From positions 1 through 50,995 of the IMG/VR virus record IMGVR_UViG_3300010885_010496: a stretch of 50,995 nt of DNA. The stretch is one strand, 5' to 3'. Of the stretch, positions 5,849 through 47,413 are shown in pieces. The first letter of the stretch is position 1. Each line of letters begins with the position of its first letter. The notes beneath the pieces were generated by a model. The model did no database searches. It saw only the letters and a list, made by a program, of their open reading frames with translations, and had not been told where the DNA came from. This DNA is from a virus. Made by a program: the position numbers and the translations under genes.

Positions 5849-6085
5849 CTATACACCGGGCTTGGCAGGCGGCACAATATCTCTGTTCACCACCACAATG
5901 CTTCGCGCGCGTCCATAGCGGTACTGAATGAAGCCTCTATCAGACAAAGCGCACACCATTCTGTGTACACTTCCCTTGGATGCGACACCCATAAAGGCGG
6001 CAATCTCGCTGTAGCTGGGAGAATGCCCATTCTCAGCCAAGAATTTCTTGATGAAATCAAGAACTTGCTTCTGAAGCTTGGTCAT
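5849..6085 (-). CDS. LexA-like winged-helix DNA-binding protein
   Basis: This is a 78-residue protein from the ATG at 6085, which overlaps the previous stop as ATGA. The whole protein corresponds to the N-terminal DNA-binding domain of LexA: TKLQKQVLDFIKKFLAENGHSPSYSEIAAFMG, then SKGSVHRMVCALSDRGFIQYR with a basic wing GRARSIVV. The latent Ser-Lys protease domain of LexA is absent, so it cannot be a self-cleaving repressor. It sits between the minus promoter at 6518-6546 and the terminator before terL, a good place for a regulator of the early/late switch. Candidate targets are the palindrome at 7468-7484 or the paired GGTACC sites at 6548-6575. The DNA-binding call is firm; targets are inference. 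Confidence 0.8.
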   Translation of the reverse strand: MTKLQKQVLDFIKKFLAENGHSPSYSEIAAFMGVASKGSVHRMVCALSDRGFIQYRYGRARSIVVVNRDIVPPAKPGV

Positions 6086-12279: not shown

Positions 12280-12608
12280 GGCAACGCAGGCGTGGGTTGG
12301 CTAGGCGTGGCGCGGTGGGGCGCGGCAAGGACTGGTAACGCAGGCAAGGCAGGCGGGGCATGGACTGGTATGGCCAGGAGCGGCGAGGCGAGGACTGGCG
12401 CGGCAGGCATGGATCGGACGGGCGCGGCGAGGTTTGGTTCGGCTCGGCGAGGCAGGCTCGGACTGGAGAGGACGGGCGCGGCGTGGCCAGGAACGGCGGG
12501 GCAAGGCAACGCAGGCAAGGCAAGGATCGGCGCGGCCTGGATTGGCAAGGCACGGCAGGCGCGGCTAGGCACGGCGGGGCGCGGCACGGCATGGCGGGGC
12601 AACGCAGG
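12280..12608 (+). repeat. GG-phased degenerate pentamer array A
   Basis: About 330 bases of the plus strand read as units NNNGG (CAAGG, CGCGG, CACGG, ACTGG, CGAGG, CGGGG) with occasional 4-base CAGG units, so that GG recurs every five bases. The decamer GCAACGCAGG and near variants recur at both ends and inside. Open frames exist on both strands (12276-12602 minus, 12292-12636 plus), but this follows from the period-5 pattern and lack of T; none has a ribosome site. The remaining bases to 12687 hold two hairpins and the ribosome site of the next gene. Confidence 0.85.
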
Positions 12609-12613
12609 AATAA

Positions 12614-12666
12614 CAACTGAAGGAATGGTCCTTTAGTTGACTACCCCACATCGATAACGGTGTGGG
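12614..12666 (+). promoter_or_regulatory. tandem hairpin leader before the 12688 gene
   Basis: 12614-12624 pairs with 12629-12639 over 11 bp with loop ATGG, the same loop and closing A-U pair as the hairpin at 8966-8995. A second hairpin pairs CCCACATC (12645-12652) with GGTGTGGG (12659-12666), with loop GATAAC. AAGGAGAG and the ATG at 12688 follow. Confidence 0.65.
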
Positions 12667-12687
12667 TTAAACAAGGAGAGAATAATC

Positions 12688-13335
12688 ATGACTGAAGTTT
12701 CAAAGATTCCGACGACCAGCATTAACATCAAGCCGCCCGCGATGCAGCGGATGGTGTTGCGTATCGTTGGCACCGCACCGCTGGTGATCAATCGCTTTCC
12801 TGCCAAGGCGCAGCAGGCGATGATGGAAAAGATGGCGGCTGGTTCGACCGCCAAGAAGGGCGCGAAGCGTGACCCGAAGGACTTCGATGAAGTCTTCCAA
12901 GGCGCACGTCACCTGTCCTCTGAGGGATGGGATGGCATCCACGCTGGTGCATTCCGCAACGGTCTGATCTCGGCATGTCGGTTGGTTGGGTTCAAGATGA
13001 CCCTGGCTAAGCTCTCCCTCTTTGTGGAAGCTGATGGTCTGGATGTTATCGATGGCACCCCGCTGGTGCGGATCATTGCCGGCGAGCCAGAGCGCACAGA
13101 CATGCACGTCCGTAACGCTACCGGCGTGATCGATATCCGTACCCGTCCGATGTGGCGTGACTGGGCTGCCGATCTGCGTATCCGGTTCGACAGTGAGCAG
13201 TTCACACAGGGCGATGTTGCCGCTCTTGTTGCCCGTGTGGGTGCCCAGGTTGGCATCGGCGAGGGCCGTGCTGATTCGAAGGCCAGCACCGGCATGGGCT
13301 GGGGTCACTTCGAAATCGACAACAGCCAGCAGTAA
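12688..13335 (+). CDS. conserved phage protein of unknown function flanked by GG arrays
   Basis: This is a 215-residue protein. It begins MTEVSKIPTTSINIKPPAMQR, then MVLRIVGTAPLVINRFPAKA, a helical Lys-rich segment (AKKGAKRDPKDFDEVFQ), HAGAFRNGLISACRLVGFKMTLAK, and a C-terminus with VGIGEGRADSKASTGMGWGHFEI. The G-T-A-P-L-V start and glycine-rich end are typical of a widespread phage family of unknown role. The strand pattern and G-rich loop recall RAMP/Cas7-like folds, but I treat that as speculation. It is the only gene lying between the two GG-phased arrays and has its own hairpin leader and a UUCG-capped hairpin after its stop, so it looks like a discrete cassette. Confidence 0.75.
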   Translation: MTEVSKIPTTSINIKPPAMQRMVLRIVGTAPLVINRFPAKAQQAMMEKMAAGSTAKKGAKRDPKDFDEVFQGARHLSSEGWDGIHAGAFRNGLISACRLVGFKMTLAKLSLFVEADGLDVIDGTPLVRIIAGEPERTDMHVRNATGVIDIRTRPMWRDWAADLRIRFDSEQFTQGDVAALVARVGAQVGIGEGRADSKASTGMGWGHFEIDNSQQ

Positions 13336-13342
13336 TAACATG

Positions 13343-13370
13343 CTGCGCCCTGCCTTCGGGTGGGGCGCAG
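13343..13370 (+). terminator. UUCG-capped hairpin after the 12688 gene
   Basis: CTGCGCCCTGCC pairs with GGTGGGGCGCAG around a TTCG tetraloop: 12 bp including two G-U pairs. It starts eight bases after the stop codon at 13335. Only TT follows, so it is not a clear intrinsic terminator; a 3' stabilising hairpin or weak terminator is more likely. Confidence 0.55.
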
Positions 13371-13646
13371 TTGGCATGGCAGGCGCGGATAGGCGGGGAC
13401 TGGTGCGGCTGGGCGGGGCTTGATTAAGGCAAGGCAGGCATGGCACGGACTGGCGTGACAGGGTGAGGACAGGCACGGCAGGCATGGATCGGCGCGGCAC
13501 GGCTCGGCGAGGTGGGGTTCGGCACGGCAGGCAAGGCTAGGAGTGGGCTGGTAGGGCACGGCTGGGACTGGCACGGCAGGCAAGGCAAGGAAAGGCCGGG
13601 CACGGCTGGGCGCGGACTGGCGAGGCAGGGCGCGGCAGGCACGGCT
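13371..13646 (+). repeat. GG-phased degenerate pentamer array B
   Basis: This is the second array with the same grammar as 12280-12608 and the same orientation (G-rich plus strand): NNNGG units with interspersed CAGG. It is not a simple copy, because unit order differs. A short hairpin (ATCCAC/GTGGAT, 13655-13678) and AAGGAGAG lead into the next gene at 13696. Confidence 0.85.
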
Positions 13647-13695
13647 ACCCAAACATCCACAGCAATCATGCGGTGGATAATTAAGGAGAGAACTA

Positions 13696-14148
13696 ATGCG
13701 TACATTAAACAAGGACCAGCTCTATGAGCTGGAGATGCTCCGGGTTCAGGCCGGTGGCGAACTGAAGCCCGATGATGTGGTGGATTTTGCCCGGTCGAAT
13801 AACACAGCGCTGCATTCCGCGTTCGAATGGGATGACAGCGAGGCGGCCAAGAAGTACCGGCTGCAACAGGCCGGTCAGGTGATCCGCGTGGCGGTCACGA
13901 TGCTGCCCCGTCCTGACGGTGCGCTGATTCCGGTCAGGGCTTATGTCTATGACCAGACCAAGGCGACCTACGCACTCACCCAGGCGGTGGTGCAGGATGA
14001 TGTTAGGGCTGAAGCTTTGTTGAAGCAGATGCGTGCCGAGGTACACCGGGTGACCGCCCGCTATCGCCGGTACGCGGAGCTTGTGCCTCACATCGATGCG
14101 GCACTGGCTCAGATGGAAGCCATCGAAGAAGGGGAGGCGCTGGCATGA
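13696..14148 (+). CDS. conserved phage protein (FEWDDS family)
   Basis: This is a 150-residue protein. The signature LHSAFEWDDSEAAKKYRLQQAGQVIR near residues 38-65 is typical of a phage and prophage protein family of unknown function. An RAYVYD strand and a long C-terminal helix (LLKQMRAEVHRVTARYRRYAEL) follow. ATG 13696 has AAGGAGAG six bases upstream. It overlaps the next gene by four bases. Confidence 0.75.
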   Translation: MRTLNKDQLYELEMLRVQAGGELKPDDVVDFARSNNTALHSAFEWDDSEAAKKYRLQQAGQVIRVAVTMLPRPDGALIPVRAYVYDQTKATYALTQAVVQDDVRAEALLKQMRAEVHRVTARYRRYAELVPHIDAALAQMEAIEEGEALA

Positions 14149-14345: not shown

Positions 14346-14351
14346 GGTGAA

Positions 14352-14424
14352 TGCGCCCGGTTGGATTCGAACCAACGGCCTGAAGCTTAGAAGGCTCCTG
14401 ATCTATCCTCTGATCTACGGGCGC
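14352..14424 (-). tRNA. tRNA-Arg (UCU)
   Basis: On the minus strand the full cloverleaf is present: acceptor GCGCCCG/CGGGCGC, D arm GATC/GATC, anticodon stem GGAGC/GCTTC around loop CTTCTAA (anticodon TCT), variable AGGCC, and T arm GTTGG/CCAAC around TTCGAAT. The discriminator is A and CCA is not encoded. It reads AGA and AGG codons, rare in GC-rich hosts. It lies just after the primase-helicase stop and is probably co-transcribed with it. Confidence 0.95.
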
Positions 14425-14428
14425 ATAG

Positions 14429-36448: not shown

Positions 36449-39400
36449 TTAGATTTTCTCTGACGTTGTAGCAACAGGAGATGCTTCTGGATGCTCTTTT
36501 CTGTAGCTGTCAAACTCTGACTTAAGTTCTTGGACGGCCTTCCATAGCACAGGTATCAGTTGGTCTGGGCGAAGATGTTCCGTGCCTTCTTCGTCTTTAA
36601 CATACCCGCCGAAATCAAGGCCAGTCTTGTCGAAGGCGGCCTTCACATCAGACGCCAAGAAGCCCCAGTGCGTGCGCTTGCCGGGTCTATCGACGTAGAA
36701 CGTCTCTTCAACATCTTCTTCAGTGAAGTCTTCGGTGCCCAGGATTGGCAACTGCTTTCTGGTGATCCTCTTTTCCGGCACAAGGCCGCCCGATATCCAC
36801 CTGAAGGTAACGGGATCAATGTCTTGGATGATTGGCAACGCCGTAGGCAGCGGGGATATGTCGGTCTTGAGGGATGGGTCGGATGTTATGATGGTGCCGT
36901 TGGCGGCGTATACGTTTGCCCAAAGAAGAGAGGAGCTACCAAGATTGTATGAATTGGTTACACGCGGCGTGACGTTTGCGGCAATTAAATCGCCACCCAT
37001 CTTTAATCCGCTACCGTTAGCTGTATAGTTTTGGACTATTTTATTTATGGCGCTTGTACCTCCAGAACCTCCATCAGTTCCATCATAAATGTTTGCTGTA
37101 ATGTTGCCATTAATTACGTTGCCAACAATTTGAAAGTAGTCGGTGTCTGTTCCGCCAACAATATAGATTCCCCAACCTTGAGTTGGGGTTAATGGAACTA
37201 ATGTTGAACTACCGGGAGGATCGCGCATAAGAAATGAAGTGTCGTTAGTGATATTATTTCCTGTAATAGTAAATCTTGAAACATTATAACCAACACCAAT
37301 ACCAGCATAATATCCTGGAAACTTTGCGGAATTATAGACAATAGCATTATTACTTATGCAGGAGCTAAAGCCAGCATTCAACAAAATTCCAAACTGAGCC
37401 GCGCTATGAATGCGACTATTAGTTACCAAAAGCTCACTACGCCAATTGCCTGTTGTGAGAATCCCATTGCCATTATAGTTAGCGCCAATCCAACTTGTGG
37501 TAATGAAGCAGCCTTCACCGCCCTCTAAAATTATAGAGCCATTGGATTGATGATCACATTCCAAATCAAAAGCATGAAGCCATGTTGGGAATGAGTATTC
37601 TGCTGGGGTGTATGGTTGATTTTGGCTATCCGTCATACGAACAGCAGTGCCGCCCCACAAAAACGCGCAGGCCGTAACAATCAAGCTGTGAGCATATGAA
37701 TCATAAAGAAGGCAATCAAAAGTAATTGAGGTTGAAGTTACATTGCCTCCACCTGGGTAAATCTGAGGTATAGTTCCTGGTGATGTAATTACCGTTGAGT
37801 TCCAAGGGATGCTAAAGGTGGTGGGAGTAAGAACTGTTACTGTCCATGTTGGGTTAGCGCTGGTATTGTTGGCACCATACGGAACAATAACTGGTGTCGC
37901 TCCTGATGCTGCTGTATTGACATCCGGGATTCCCTCAATTGAAACAGTGTCGCCTGTTGCTAAATTGTGGTTAAATATTGTGGTTACAACTGCTGAAGTT
38001 GCATTGGATACTCCAGAAATTTGCAAACTATTGTCCATAACAACTCTGTCAAGAACACCACGAAGACTTGGCTTGTTAATTTTTTCCGCTGCATTAACAA
38101 CTCCAAAGTATTTTATGCCATAATCTCCAGAAAAATAACGCAATTCGCAATCAATAACTTGATTGCCAGTTCCCCACATTGAAACACCATTGCCGGTTCC
38201 AGTAATTCTGCACGTTCTAACTTCACAGAAATATGAATTTTTAAAAGCAATTCCATTTCCAAGAGTTAAGTTGCTCGCTCCGGGCGAGCGTCTAATGGTG
38301 AGAGATTCAATTATGCAATGTTGTTTTTCGTCAATAGTTATGACGTCTCTTGCTGTGCCGTCGCTAGGCGCTCCCCATTCAATGATCGTGGCCGCAGTTG
38401 CCGTTGTGTCGTCAACGGTAAATGGTCCATAGCCGCTTTCGCCATACAGCCGCTGGCTACTGGATGTCATTGATAGGCCGGACGTAATGAAGTACCTGCC
38501 CGGCGGCAGATAGACGTTCTTCCCGGTGTTTAGTGCGTTCTGAATGGCAGTCGTATCATCGGTGCTACCATTACCAACCGCACCAAAGTCCTTCACGCTA
38601 ACAACATCAGCCGCCTTGTTCTGCCAAGTGCGGGTTGTTGCTCCTGTTCCAGGCTGCAAGAAGCCCTGGAAGGTGGCGGGTGAAGCCCCATTACCAGTAA
38701 GCGCGTAGCCAGCAGTGCCGGTGGTGGGAGATGCGGAAGCCGCCGAGGTCCAAGTTGTGCCGTTAGATGTCAGTACGTTGCCGGTAGCGCCAGGGGCAAC
38801 GAACTGCACAGGGCTTGTCCCATTGCCCAGCAAGACGTTGTTGGCAGTCAGAGTGGACGCGCCTGTACCGCCCTGTGAAATGCTTAGCGGTGTAGTCAGC
38901 CCGGTTAAACTGGTGATGTTGGAGTTAGCACCGCTAGTTGCGTAGCCAGCAATGCTCGCTCCTGCGGGGATGGTTACCGTGCCGGTGAATGTGGGGCTGG
39001 CCAACGGAGCGCGTGTCGTATCGGTAGGGTGAACGTGGTCCTGGCGCGCATAGCGAAGGCTGGTGCCGGTCGCAGCCGTTCCGTTAATCAGAGGGGCAAC
39101 ACTAGCAGCTTGCCCAGTAACAAATGCGGTCGTGGCTATCTGTGTAGTTGATGTATCAACGGCAGCGGTAGTTGATGTGGGAGTTCCGGTCAGTGCTGGA
39201 CTAGCTAACGGAGCGCGTGTCGTGTCCGTAGGATGAACGTGATCCTGGCGGGCGTAACGCAGGCTTGTCCCTGCTGCGGCTGTACCATCAATCAGAGGCG
39301 CTACCGATGATGCTTGCCCAGTAACGAATGCCGTTGTCGCGATCTGTGTGGTCGATGTATCAACTGCGGCCGTGGTTGAGGTCGGCGTTCCTGTCAGGGC

Positions 39401-41545
39401 TGGACTAGCCAATGGAGCGCGTGTTGTATCTGTGGGGTGGACGTGATCTTGACGCGCATAGCGAAGGCTGGTTCCCGCCGCAGCGGTGCCATCAACCAAG
39501 GGCGCTGTTGCTGAAGCTTGCCCAGTGACAAACGCTGTCGTAGCAATTTGCGTGGTGGATGTATCGACGGCAGCCGTTGGGGCAGTAGGCGTCCCTGTCA
39601 AGGCTGGGCTAGCAGATGGCGCTCCACCTAAGGCTGTCAACGCGCTTCCCGCTGTAGTGGAGCCTGTGCCGCCATTGGCAATTGCTAGCGTACCAGCAAG
39701 CGTTATTGTGCCAGAGGTTGTAATTGGCCCGCCAGAGGTAGTCAGCCCGGTTGTTCCTCCAGACACGTCCACGCTGATTACCGAACCGCCTCCGGTAATG
39801 CCGAGATTGGTCCTTGCGTCCGTAGCGTTTGTTGCGCCGGTACCGCCTTGTGAAATGCTTAGCGGTGTAGTCAATCCGGTCAAGCTGGTAATAGAGCTAT
39901 TGACCCCGCTAGTTGCATACCCAGCAATGCTTGCACCAGCCGGAATTGTGACCGTGCCCGTAAAGGTTGGGCTAGCAAGTGGAGCGCGTGTTGTATCGGT
40001 AGGATGAACGTGATCTTGCCTTGCGTACCGAAGGCTTGTTCCTGCTGCGGCGGTGCCATCAACAAGTGGAGCTACCGCTGACGCTTGCCCGGTGACGAAT
40101 GCAGCCGTGGCGATCTGCGTTGTGGATGTATCAACTGCGGCCGTTGGGGCGGTTGGCGTGCCTGTTAGGGATGGGCTGGCCAATGGCGCGCGGGTTGTAT
40201 CTGTGGGATGGACATGGTCTTGCCTTGCGTAACGCAAGCTGGTTCCGACCGTGGCCGTACCGTCAACCAAGGGCGCAACTGCCGAGGCTTGGCCAGTAAC
40301 AAACGCAGTTGTTGCGATTTGTGTGGTTGATGTATCAACGGCAGCAGTGGTTGAGGTTGGCGTTCCTGTCAACGCCGGGCTAGCCAAGGGCGCGCGAGTG
40401 GTGTCGGTCGGGTGAATATGGTCTTGGCGAGCGTAGCTCAAGCTAGTGCCAACAGTGGCCGTGCCGTCAACCAGCGGCGCTACTGTGGCGGCCTGACCAA
40501 CCACAAACGCGGTCGTTGCCAATTGAGTTGTGTTAGTATTGGTGGCTGCTGTGGGCGCTGTAGGCGTTCCAGTTAGCGCCGGACTAGCCAGAGGCGCACG
40601 AGTTGTATCTGTGGGGTGAACGTGATCTTGCCGCGCATAACGCAGACTCGTTCCTACTGCGGCTGTTCCATCAATGATCGGCGCTACTGATGAGGCTTGG
40701 CCAGTAACAAATGCGGTAGTGGCAATTTGCGTTGTTGATGTGTCAACCGCTGCTGTGGTTGAGGTTGGCGTTCCTGTCAGGGCCGGGCTGGCCAAAGGTG
40801 CTGCTCCAAGAGCAGTCAGCGCAGCGCCTGCTGTTGTTGCACCCGTGCCGCCATTGGCGATGCCCAGCGTGCCAGCAAGCGTGATGGTGCCAGAGGTTGT
40901 GATCGGTCCACCAGAAGTGGTTAGGCCAGTGGTGCCGCCAGATACGTTTACGCTAGTTACGCCACCACCACCGCCGCCGCCAGTAGCAGCGATTGTTATG
41001 CCGCCAGCAGAATTAGAAATAGTTATGTTTGACCCAGCCGTTAGCGTTGCAGCACTATAGCCAGAGCCATTTCCAATTGGAATTTGACCGTCGGTTGGGA
41101 TAGTTGTCAGCCCAGTACCGCCATTAGCAACGCCAAGCGTTCCAGCTAGAGTAATGGTGCCAGAGGTGGTGATCGGGCCGCCGGATGTGGTTAAGCCCGT
41201 TGTGCCGCCAGAGACAGCAACGCTAGTCACTGAGCCACCGCTGGTGATGCCTAGGTTGGTTCTGGCGTCGGTGGCGTTTGTTGCGCCGGTACCGCCGTTG
41301 GCAATGGCCAGCGTGCCACCAAGCGTTATAGTGCCAGCCGTAGTGATTGGGCTGCCGGATGTGGTTATGCCTGTCGTGCCGCCAGATACGGCCACGCTAG
41401 TAACAGTCCCAGCGCCGGTAGGCGTAGCAGCCACGTTAGCAAAGGCAGAGTCAAGGTTCTGGTCGATTGCCCTGGTAAGCTGGTCGCCCCAGGACCTATC
41501 CCAGTCATCAGTCGCAAGCGGAAGTCTTGTGCGGCCTTGGCTCAT
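36449..41545 (-). CDS. giant tail fibre / tailspike with repeats, beta-helix and S74 chaperone
   Basis: This is a 1698-residue protein. The N-terminus attaches to the particle ([23 protein letters not shown]). Residues about 245-850 carry seven copies of a 68-residue repeat with the signature [24 protein letters not shown] and [15 protein letters not shown], in blocks of four and three. At about 970 a pectate-lyase-like beta-helix begins ([24 protein letters not shown]). The end is an S74-type intramolecular chaperone ([42 protein letters not shown]) that trimerises the fibre and may cut itself off. The beta-helix part is much more AT-rich than the repeats, suggesting a separately acquired receptor domain. 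Confidence 0.88.
38990..40805 (-). repeat. 204-base coding repeats in the tail fibre
   Basis: Seven copies of a unit of about 204 bases (68 residues) lie in two blocks, four then three, separated by a [32 protein letters not shown] spacer that itself recurs. Copies differ by synonymous changes and a few substitutions (STT versus APT after GTPT). Unequal exchange could change the fibre length. Confidence 0.85.
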
Positions 41546-46192: not shown

Positions 46193-47413
46193 TTAGCTAT
46201 TCCCTATTGGTGTCCATGTTGAACTTACGGCAGGAACTGGCGTCCAGAGCTGCCCTGGATTTGGTATGGGCTGCCATCCGCCATACCCCTTTGTAACATC
46301 GATCAGAGATATTGTATCCGAAGCTGATCTTGGGATGATAGCAATATTTGTGGCGATATCAACAAGGGCAATTGAATCAACCGCAGATGGCTGTGCGGAT
46401 ATCTTGCCACTAGAAGAGTCGGAAATGACAAGGGTATCAGACGCGCTAACTACCGCGACGCGCCCGCCTGTCACAGAATCTGACAACGACAAGCTATCGG
46501 ACGCGCTTCTTACGTAGATAATGCCAGGAACAGAGCTATCAGATAGAGTTAAAGAATCTGAGCCGCTGACAAAATACCCAGACTCAGGTGTCGTGAGGTC
46601 AAGTAGGGTTAGCGTATCGGACGCAATGTCAATCAGGCTGGCAATTGAGGCGCTAACATCAACCAGAGACAGGCTATCAAAACCACTAGCCACCGCGTCT
46701 AGTTTGGTTGCTGTAGATTCAGTAAACGTTATGAAGTCAGAAGCATTGCCCAGAAAGGACGCGACAATTGCTGCACTATCGGCCAGCGTCAGCGTGTCGG
46801 ATACGCTAACGCCAACGAATGCTACAAAACTTGCCGCGTCCACCAAGGTGATGGAGTCGGAGGAACTTAGCGAGTAAGACGTGCCGCCGCCAGACACATC
46901 AGACAGCGTCAAGGCATCAGAAACGGCGCTGGAGATGCTTATTGCGACAGAGCCGATGTCAGATAGCGTGATAGTGTCAGAGGCATTGCCCAGGAAGGAC
47001 GCCACGCTCACCGAGCTGTCAGTCAGCGTCAGTGTGTCGGACGCGCTAACTCCAGCAAAAGCTATGAAGCTTGTTGTGTCCGCAAGAGTGATGGAGTCAG
47101 AAGAGTTCAGCGAATAAGCTGTACCGCCACCAGAAACATCAGACAGCACCAGATCATCAGAGGCGTCTCTGGAGGCGCTTATTGCGGCAGAGCTGGTGTC
47201 GGATAGCGTCAGGGTATCAGAGGCGTCCACAGAGGCGCTGAGGACGCTTGTGGTGGATTCTGTTAGGACAATAGAATCGGACGCTAGCCCAACTAGGCTT
47301 GCCACATTCGTCGTGCTGTCGGTCAGCGTTAGAGCGTCGGACGCAATCCCCTGAATGGAGGTCTTGCCCTGATCACTAAACGGCGCAGCAGAGAATGGGA
47401 AGAAGCCAAACAT
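46193..47413 (-). CDS. tandem SDxLxLxD repeat protein
   Basis: This is a 406-residue protein made almost entirely of about 18 copies of a 20-22-residue repeat with core ASDTLTLSDSS (S-D-x-[LI]-x-[LVF]-x-[DE]). The regular strand-turn pattern suggests a beta-solenoid or stacked small domains, and the Asp ladder could bind Ca. The last 60 residues lack repeats and are Trp/Pro-rich (GWQPIPNPGQLWTPVPAVSSTWTP). It is a late gene on the tail side and is likely an accessory or adhesive virion protein. Family unknown. Confidence 0.75.
   Translation of the reverse strand: MFGFFPFSAAPFSDQGKTSIQGIASDALTLTDSTTNVASLVGLASDSIVLTESTTSVLSASVDASDTLTLSDTSSAAISASRDASDDLVLSDVSGGGTAYSLNSSDSITLADTTSFIAFAGVSASDTLTLTDSSVSVASFLGNASDTITLSDIGSVAISISSAVSDALTLSDVSGGGTSYSLSSSDSITLVDAASFVAFVGVSVSDTLTLADSAAIVASFLGNASDFITFTESTATKLDAVASGFDSLSLVDVSASIASLIDIASDTLTLLDLTTPESGYFVSGSDSLTLSDSSVPGIIYVRSASDSLSLSDSVTGGRVAVVSASDTLVISDSSSGKISAQPSAVDSIALVDIATNIAIIPRSASDTISLIDVTKGYGGWQPIPNPGQLWTPVPAVSSTWTPIGNS

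What the first reader, a model, noticed from the sequence alone, without database searches (positions are those of the whole stretch)
12280..13646. Two GG-phased pentamer arrays flank a single gene
Arrays at 12280-12608 and 13371-13646 are built from NNNGG units with CAGG spacers, so GG recurs every five bases over hundreds of bases, G-rich on the same strand. They bracket one conserved phage gene (12688-13335), which has its own leader and end hairpins. The sequences are degenerate, not simple copies, so the grammar (phase and GG) seems to be what is kept. Possibilities: two-quartet G-quadruplex or R-loop forming DNA, a multimeric protein landing site, or recombination tracts that let the cassette move or be lost by annealing (the phage encodes ERF and a RecB-like nuclease).
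Basis: partly seen in the sequence, partly recalled or inferred. Interest (0 to 1): 0.85.

Follow-up and report, generated by a model that had tools for sequence, protein, structure and literature searches.

The report
Phage VIPR guide-RNA arrays and gene
The two repeating tracts are very probably banks of guide RNAs for a recently described phage RNA-guided DNA-recognition system called VIPR, a proposed ancestor of CRISPR, and the gene between them encodes the Cas7-like protein that would use them, most likely to silence competing phages.

Summary
GG recurs every 5 nt in both tracts (lag-5 autocorrelation z = 10.6 and 9.0 against dinucleotide shuffles) and nowhere else in the window. The interpretation needs replacing. 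The flanked gene (12688-13335) belongs to a phage family whose profile matches the solved "SUSP1 Vipr protein" (PDB 36pp, E = 1.2e-7). Its AlphaFold model matches CRISPR Cas7 backbone subunits. Vipr is the RAMP protein of VIPR systems, described in a 2026 preprint (PMC13142463): guide RNAs of YNNGG repeats in which NN pairs with DNA and one target base is skipped per unit. Here the arrays are same-strand, with GG fixed and NN near-random. GCAGG phase shifts cut them into 11 guide-sized blocks of 44-59 nt. A second gene (13696-14148) is the probable Vap partner. Of 105 loci with this Vipr, 95 carry a same-strand array, including Mycobacterium and Gordonia phages at about 29% protein identity. 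Sister phages keep leader and genes but differ in guide content. I found no natural targets, and the target searches were insensitive. This is a new member of a known kind. Guide-RNA expression, target binding and silencing are inferred, not shown here.

The parts
12280..12608 (+). vrRNA (guide) array 1, YNNGG units in GCAGG-delimited blocks; guide-sized blocks at 12291-12344, 12354-12407, 12408-12456, 12457-12515, 12516-12559, 12560-12608
   Evidence: GG lag-5 autocorrelation z 10.6; unit statistics; block coordinates
12516..12559 (+). the one guide block identical in the sister phage
   Evidence: (same block in L006)
12614..12666 (+). leader with two predicted hairpins between array 1 and vipr; 98.7% identical in the sister phage
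   Evidence: fold -28.9 kcal/mol; identity
12688..13335 (+). vipr: Cas7-like RAMP protein, 215 aa
   Evidence: PHROG 4652; profile hit to PDB 36pp SUSP1 Vipr E 1.2e-7; AF2 model and Foldseek matches to Csm/Cmr/type VII Cas7
13342..13371 (+). strong hairpin at the start of array 2
   Evidence: fold -25.5 kcal/mol; region 97% identical in the sister phage
13371..13646 (+). vrRNA (guide) array 2; guide-sized blocks at 13384-13438, 13439-13482, 13483-13531, 13532-13580, 13581-13639
   Evidence: GG lag-5 autocorrelation z 9.0; blocks
13655..13678 (+). hairpin after array 2, ahead of the vap ribosome-binding site
13696..14148 (+). probable vap (VIPR accessory protein), 150 aa, PHROG 15946
   Evidence: homologue in 49 of 50 viral records with this Vipr and recovered from 89 loci; AF2 pLDDT 93

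Best explanation
This is a VIPR locus. The arrays are transcribed in the direction of the genes into vrRNAs (inferred). Copies of the RAMP protein (12688-13335) coat each guide block, about one per pentamer, holding GG and the following base while the variable NN stays exposed (inferred from the preprint's model and the Cas7-like fold). Each block of about 8-11 units then recognises double-stranded DNA that matches NN-x-NN-x-NN, skipping one base per unit, and blocks transcription there (shown for SUSP1 in the preprint, not here). The Vap protein (13696-14148) probably assists. The likely role is to silence competing phages or prophages. The GCAGG marks separate or process the guides, or mark where overlapping vrRNAs meet. 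Shown here: array grammar, Vipr homology and fold, the conserved three-part module, guide turnover. Inferred: transcription, processing, DNA binding and targets.
For: Lag-5 grammar. Profile match to SUSP1 Vipr, PDB 36pp, E 1.2e-7. Cas7-family Foldseek matches in all 50 listed rows. SUSP1 control genome shows the same kind of GGY/NN tracts around its vipr and vap genes. 95 of 105 loci with this Vipr have a same-strand array; Vap homologue in 49 of 50 records. GG fixed and NN near-maximal entropy over 4663 units. Guide blocks turn over between sister phages while leader and genes stay. NN composition fits codon positions 1-2 better than other registers (+77 bits, bootstrap 53-102), as expected if the skipped base is the wobble base. 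Preprint PMC13142463.
Against: No natural target found: block guides match 3.9 Mb of related phage DNA no better than unit-shuffled guides; exact IMG/VR scans gave 0 for three window blocks, though a SUSP1 guide also gave 0. 20% of window units have A instead of a pyrimidine after GG. No structured vrRNA tail per block as in SUSP1. Vap is not similar to SUSP1 Vap1. No promoter consensus. Expression untested.
Confidence: 0.88

Rival explanations
1. The arrays are binding platforms for the Cas7-like protein without a guide function: a TRAP-like autoregulatory or storage site in the operon's untranslated regions, where each subunit recognises GG every 5 nt and the NN content is irrelevant.
For: Arrays sit in the untranslated regions of the vipr-vap operon; the 5-nt period and GG fit a repeated subunit footprint; no target found.
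Against: Whole blocks with new NN content replace one another between sister phages while the leader stays 98.7% identical; NN carries a codon position 1-2 signature; discrete block lengths; the characterised homologue uses NN as guide (PMC13142463).
Confidence: 0.07
2. DNA-level structure: two-quartet G-quadruplex, R-loop or recombination tract bracketing a mobile cassette.
For: G-rich on one strand (G4Hunter 0.81 and 0.87); arrays flank the gene in this phage; an Erf-like annealing protein is encoded.
Against: A 5-nt register with near-random NN is not needed for quadruplexes or annealing. Many relatives have one array only, upstream, downstream or after vap, so bracketing is not general. 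Partner is a Cas7-like protein.
Confidence: 0.03
3. Low-complexity microsatellite expansion by slippage with no function.
For: Short tandem unit; length varies between relatives.
Against: Slippage gives identical copies, but here NN is close to maximal entropy while GG and phase are kept; same-strand linkage to vipr in 95 of 105 loci.
Confidence: 0.02

Closest known systems
VIPR systems (PMC13142463), e.g. type II of Escherichia phage SUSP1
   Same: Small phage-encoded RAMP protein, tandem YNNGG / GGY-NN tracts on the gene's strand in the flanking intergenic regions, one small accessory gene; sequence homology of Vipr.
   Different: Continuous arrays of about 11 GCAGG-delimited blocks instead of four discrete tailed vrRNAs; C (or A) after GG instead of mostly T; Vap unrelated in sequence to SUSP1 Vap1. 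The preprint mentions 'staggered arrays with overlapping vrRNAs', which this may be; its supplement could not be read.
Class 1 CRISPR-Cas (Cas7/Csm3 backbone, CRISPR arrays)
   Same: Cas7-like fold with glycine-rich loop motif; multi-guide array with gain and loss of whole units.
   Different: No repeats and spacers, no Cas1/Cas2 or other cas genes found, single RAMP gene, gapped rather than contiguous guide.
TRAP (tryptophan RNA-binding attenuation protein) RNA sites
   Same: Multimer recognising a short G-containing motif every ~5 nt, about 11 times (own knowledge).
   Different: Unrelated protein fold; TRAP spacers do not encode targets; TRAP sites are single and do not turn over (own knowledge).

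Membership tests
VIPR | Vipr protein: RAMP homologue with RRM core and glycine-rich loop, small, without a second RRM | tested here: met
   Profile hit to SUSP1 Vipr E 1.2e-7; Cas7-family fold matches; 215 aa with GIGEGR...GMGWG near the C-terminus
VIPR | Tandem repeats with conserved GGY and hypervariable NN next to vipr | tested here: met
   base after GG is C or T in 76% of window units (A in 20%) and 84% over the clade, so a slightly relaxed consensus
VIPR | Compact locus: vipr plus a vap gene | tested here: met
   Vap-like neighbour in 49 of 50 records; its identity with one of vap1-6 not testable, not similar to SUSP1 Vap1
VIPR | Encoded mainly by phages and prophages | tested here: met
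   Virus record with terminase, portal and replication genes
VIPR | vrRNAs expressed and bound to Vipr | not testable with these tools
   Needs RNA sequencing and pull-down
VIPR | Target recognition by the 1-nt skip rule | tested here: inconclusive
   No targets; positive control also negative; codon-register signature suggestive
VIPR | Targets are competing phages or prophages | tested here: inconclusive
   No target identified
CRISPR-Cas | Array of identical repeats with unique spacers, and cas genes | tested here: not met
   No long identical repeats, only degenerate pentamers and GCAGG marks; no PADLOC model match for the two genes

The most novel reading that the evidence does not exclude
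This clade keeps CRISPR-like banks of about ten guides per phage, and whole guides with new NN content appear between near-identical phages while GG and leader stay fixed. This could mean a dedicated guide-writing or guide-exchange mechanism, that is, a primitive memory in a VIPR system that lacks Cas1.
Probability: 0.1. Interest if true: 0.95.

Novelty: new member of a known kind. Interest (0 to 1): 0.62.

Why it matters
VIPR was reported only in 2026, and its best-studied example (SUSP1) has four separate vrRNAs. This clade spans IMG/VR contigs, a cyanophage, contigs of several bacterial genomes, and laboratory-grown Mycobacterium and Gordonia phages, and carries multi-guide arrays. Closely related phage pairs with different guides make it possible to ask how guides are gained and what they target. 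The mycobacteriophages (Saal, BobaPhett, Quico and others) are a ready genetic system for that.

Tried and rejected
1) Skip-rule target search of 730 8-unit guides in 3.4 Mb: an apparent excess for skip 1 (45 guides vs 24-29) vanished against unit-order shuffles, so it most likely reflects codon periodicity. 2) Exact IMG/VR patterns: 0 for three window blocks; 2 unrelated chance hits for a Saal block; 11 scattered hits for an 8-unit pattern, several in a codon-wobble register but in unrelated proteins, no more than chance gives. 3) Guides of two prophage loci against about 800 genomes: 0 matches, but the reversed controls were also 0 where I would expect a few random matches, so uninformative. 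4) Rfam: no RNA family in the arrays, no hammerhead in 14 loci. 5) No sigma-70 promoter consensus between 11900 and 14200. 6) Weak Pfam hits (MelC1, diphtheria T domain) below cut-off, dismissed. 7) Vap fold search: nothing significant, weak winged-helix resemblance only.

Full report
OBSERVATION. The two tracts are real and unusual. Counting GG at lag 5 gives 55 in 12280-12608 (shuffles 17.7+/-3.5) and 46 in 13371-13646 (16.4+/-3.3), never reached in 500 dinucleotide-preserving shuffles. No other 300-bp window of the 51 kb exceeds 9 on either strand. The unit is YNNGG. In the window, base 1 is C 66%, A 20%, T 10%; the two N positions carry 1.95 and 1.99 bits of entropy; GG is kept at 92% and 86%. 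Every 44-59 nt the phase slips by one base at GCAGG, which cuts array 1 into six and array 2 into five guide-sized blocks.

GENE. 12688-13335 encodes 215 aa, PHROG 4652 of unknown function. Relatives were found in a cyanophage (62% identity), in Mycobacterium and Gordonia phages (27-30%), in many IMG/VR contigs (294 confirmed stretches) and in a few bacterial genome contigs. A profile of 18 members finds one convincing solved structure: PDB 36pp, "SUSP1 Vipr protein", E 1.2e-7; the next match is 0.51. AlphaFold2 on 14 sequences gives pLDDT 81. Foldseek against the PDB returns 51 matches at E <= 0.001; the 50 listed are Cas7-family backbone chains of Csm, Cmr and type VII complexes, TM-score about 0.35-0.50. 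The C-terminal GIGEGR...GMGWG motif fits the RAMP glycine-rich loop, although that loop is modelled with low confidence.

WHAT IT IS. The preprint PMC13142463 describes VIPR. A small ancestral RAMP, Vipr, binds vrRNAs made of 9-16 YNNGG units. GGY is fixed and NN is variable. NN pairs with double-stranded DNA with one skipped base per unit, mostly the codon wobble base. Most natural targets it found are satellites and prophages. Programmed complexes repress genes and protect against lambda. Seven types exist, with different accessory (vap) genes and array layouts, including "staggered arrays with overlapping vrRNAs". The SUSP1 genome was read here as a control: its likely vipr and vap genes are flanked by the same kind of GGY/NN tracts, and P0001 aligns to its Vipr at 33% over 42 aa.

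CONSERVED MODULE. Of 105 loci counted (mostly non-redundant; one is SUSP1 itself), 95 have a pentamer array on the strand of the gene in locus orientation. Seven have a signal on the other strand; one of these is SUSP1, whose gene is on the minus strand, and another (L055) is a C-rich stretch that does not look like a guide array. Of the ten without a call, at least L031 and L036 show degraded arrays by eye, and several others end at a contig edge. A homologue of the next gene, 13696-14148, occurs in 49 of 50 viral records and was recovered from 89 loci. It is the probable Vap. Its model (pLDDT 93) has several N-terminal helices, beta strands and a long C-terminal helix, with no significant PDB match and no similarity to SUSP1 Vap1. 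Gene order varies: array-vipr-array-vap in the window, vipr-vap-array in L010, L014 and L019, array-vipr-vap in the mycobacteriophages.

GUIDE TURNOVER. A sister phage (IMGVR 3300020042_003373) has vipr at 95% and leader at 98.7% DNA identity, yet its arrays align at only about 77% with large indels, and array 2 is about 650 instead of 276 bp. Only one block (12516-12559) is identical; one or two others are related. Cluster F mycobacteriophages differ by whole blocks: ByChance lacks a block that Saal and BobaPhett have. In near-identical 8-unit stretches from different loci, substitutions fall on Y, N, N, G, G as 6, 25, 25, 1, 5 (the filter allowed at most one broken GG per stretch, which lowers the G counts). 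Identical 40-mers are shared only within groups of close relatives.

TARGETS. None identified. The modest skip-1 excess is explained by codon periodicity, because unit-shuffled guides do as well. IMG/VR scans were exact-match and also failed for a SUSP1 guide, so they cannot refute. One target-free result is suggestive: pooled NN dinucleotides (251 non-redundant guides, 1689 units) fit the codon position 1-2 composition of these phages better than positions 2-3 (+77 bits, bootstrap 53-102), positions 3-1 (+463) or a register-free model (+128). The absolute gain over uniform is small (46 bits), and a structural preference for some NN could mimic it.

MECHANISM, WITH STATUS. Shown here: array grammar, strand and linkage rule, Vipr homology and Cas7-like fold, conserved partner gene, guide turnover. 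Taken from the preprint for a homologous system: RNA binding, 1-nt-skip DNA recognition, transcriptional repression, anti-phage effect. Inferred: that each GCAGG-bounded block is one guide, or that overlapping vrRNAs span neighbouring blocks; that the hairpins at 12614-12666, 13342-13371 and 13655-13678 mark ends or protect the RNAs; that the targets are other phages.

CONTEXT. The window is a virus record with terminase, portal, primase-helicase, Erf-like annealing protein, exonuclease and a MazG-like protein. Both VIPR genes are preceded by purine-rich ribosome-binding sites. No consensus sigma-70 promoter was found.

VERDICT. It is a new member of a known, very recently described kind. The multi-guide array and its turnover are the parts most worth following.

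Noticed in passing
L002 5809-6555; L201 19603-19767; L005 5801-6124 (Saal gp51, BobaPhett gp51, UmaThurman gp40): Deposited annotations call ORFs in or into the guide array: UmaThurman gp40 and BobaPhett gp51 lie on it, and the annotated start of Saal gp51 (vipr homologue) lies at its edge, about 50 codons upstream of a better start at 5956.
   Followed up: partly
L026 6086-6501: A Vipr relative (46% identity) with short 7-9-unit tracts separated by a constant stretch containing a CGACCTCCGAGAGGAGGTCG hairpin: a different array layout within the same clade. No Rfam match.
   Followed up: partly
L110 5648-8086 (Bacterium HR16 contig): Three separate long arrays in one locus, the most found here near one vipr gene, with no vap homologue detected.
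   Followed up: no
14351-14425 (-): tRNA-Arg (anticodon tct) on the opposite strand just downstream of the VIPR locus.
   Followed up: no
39000-39613, 39969-40798, 46736-47224: Long in-gene tandem repeats of period 204 and 240 bp, inside large minus-strand ORFs.
   Followed up: no
L055 5792-5962: A C-rich stretch just after vap scores as an opposite-strand array; by eye it is a CCATCACCCTCCCCCG repeat, not a guide array.
   Followed up: partly
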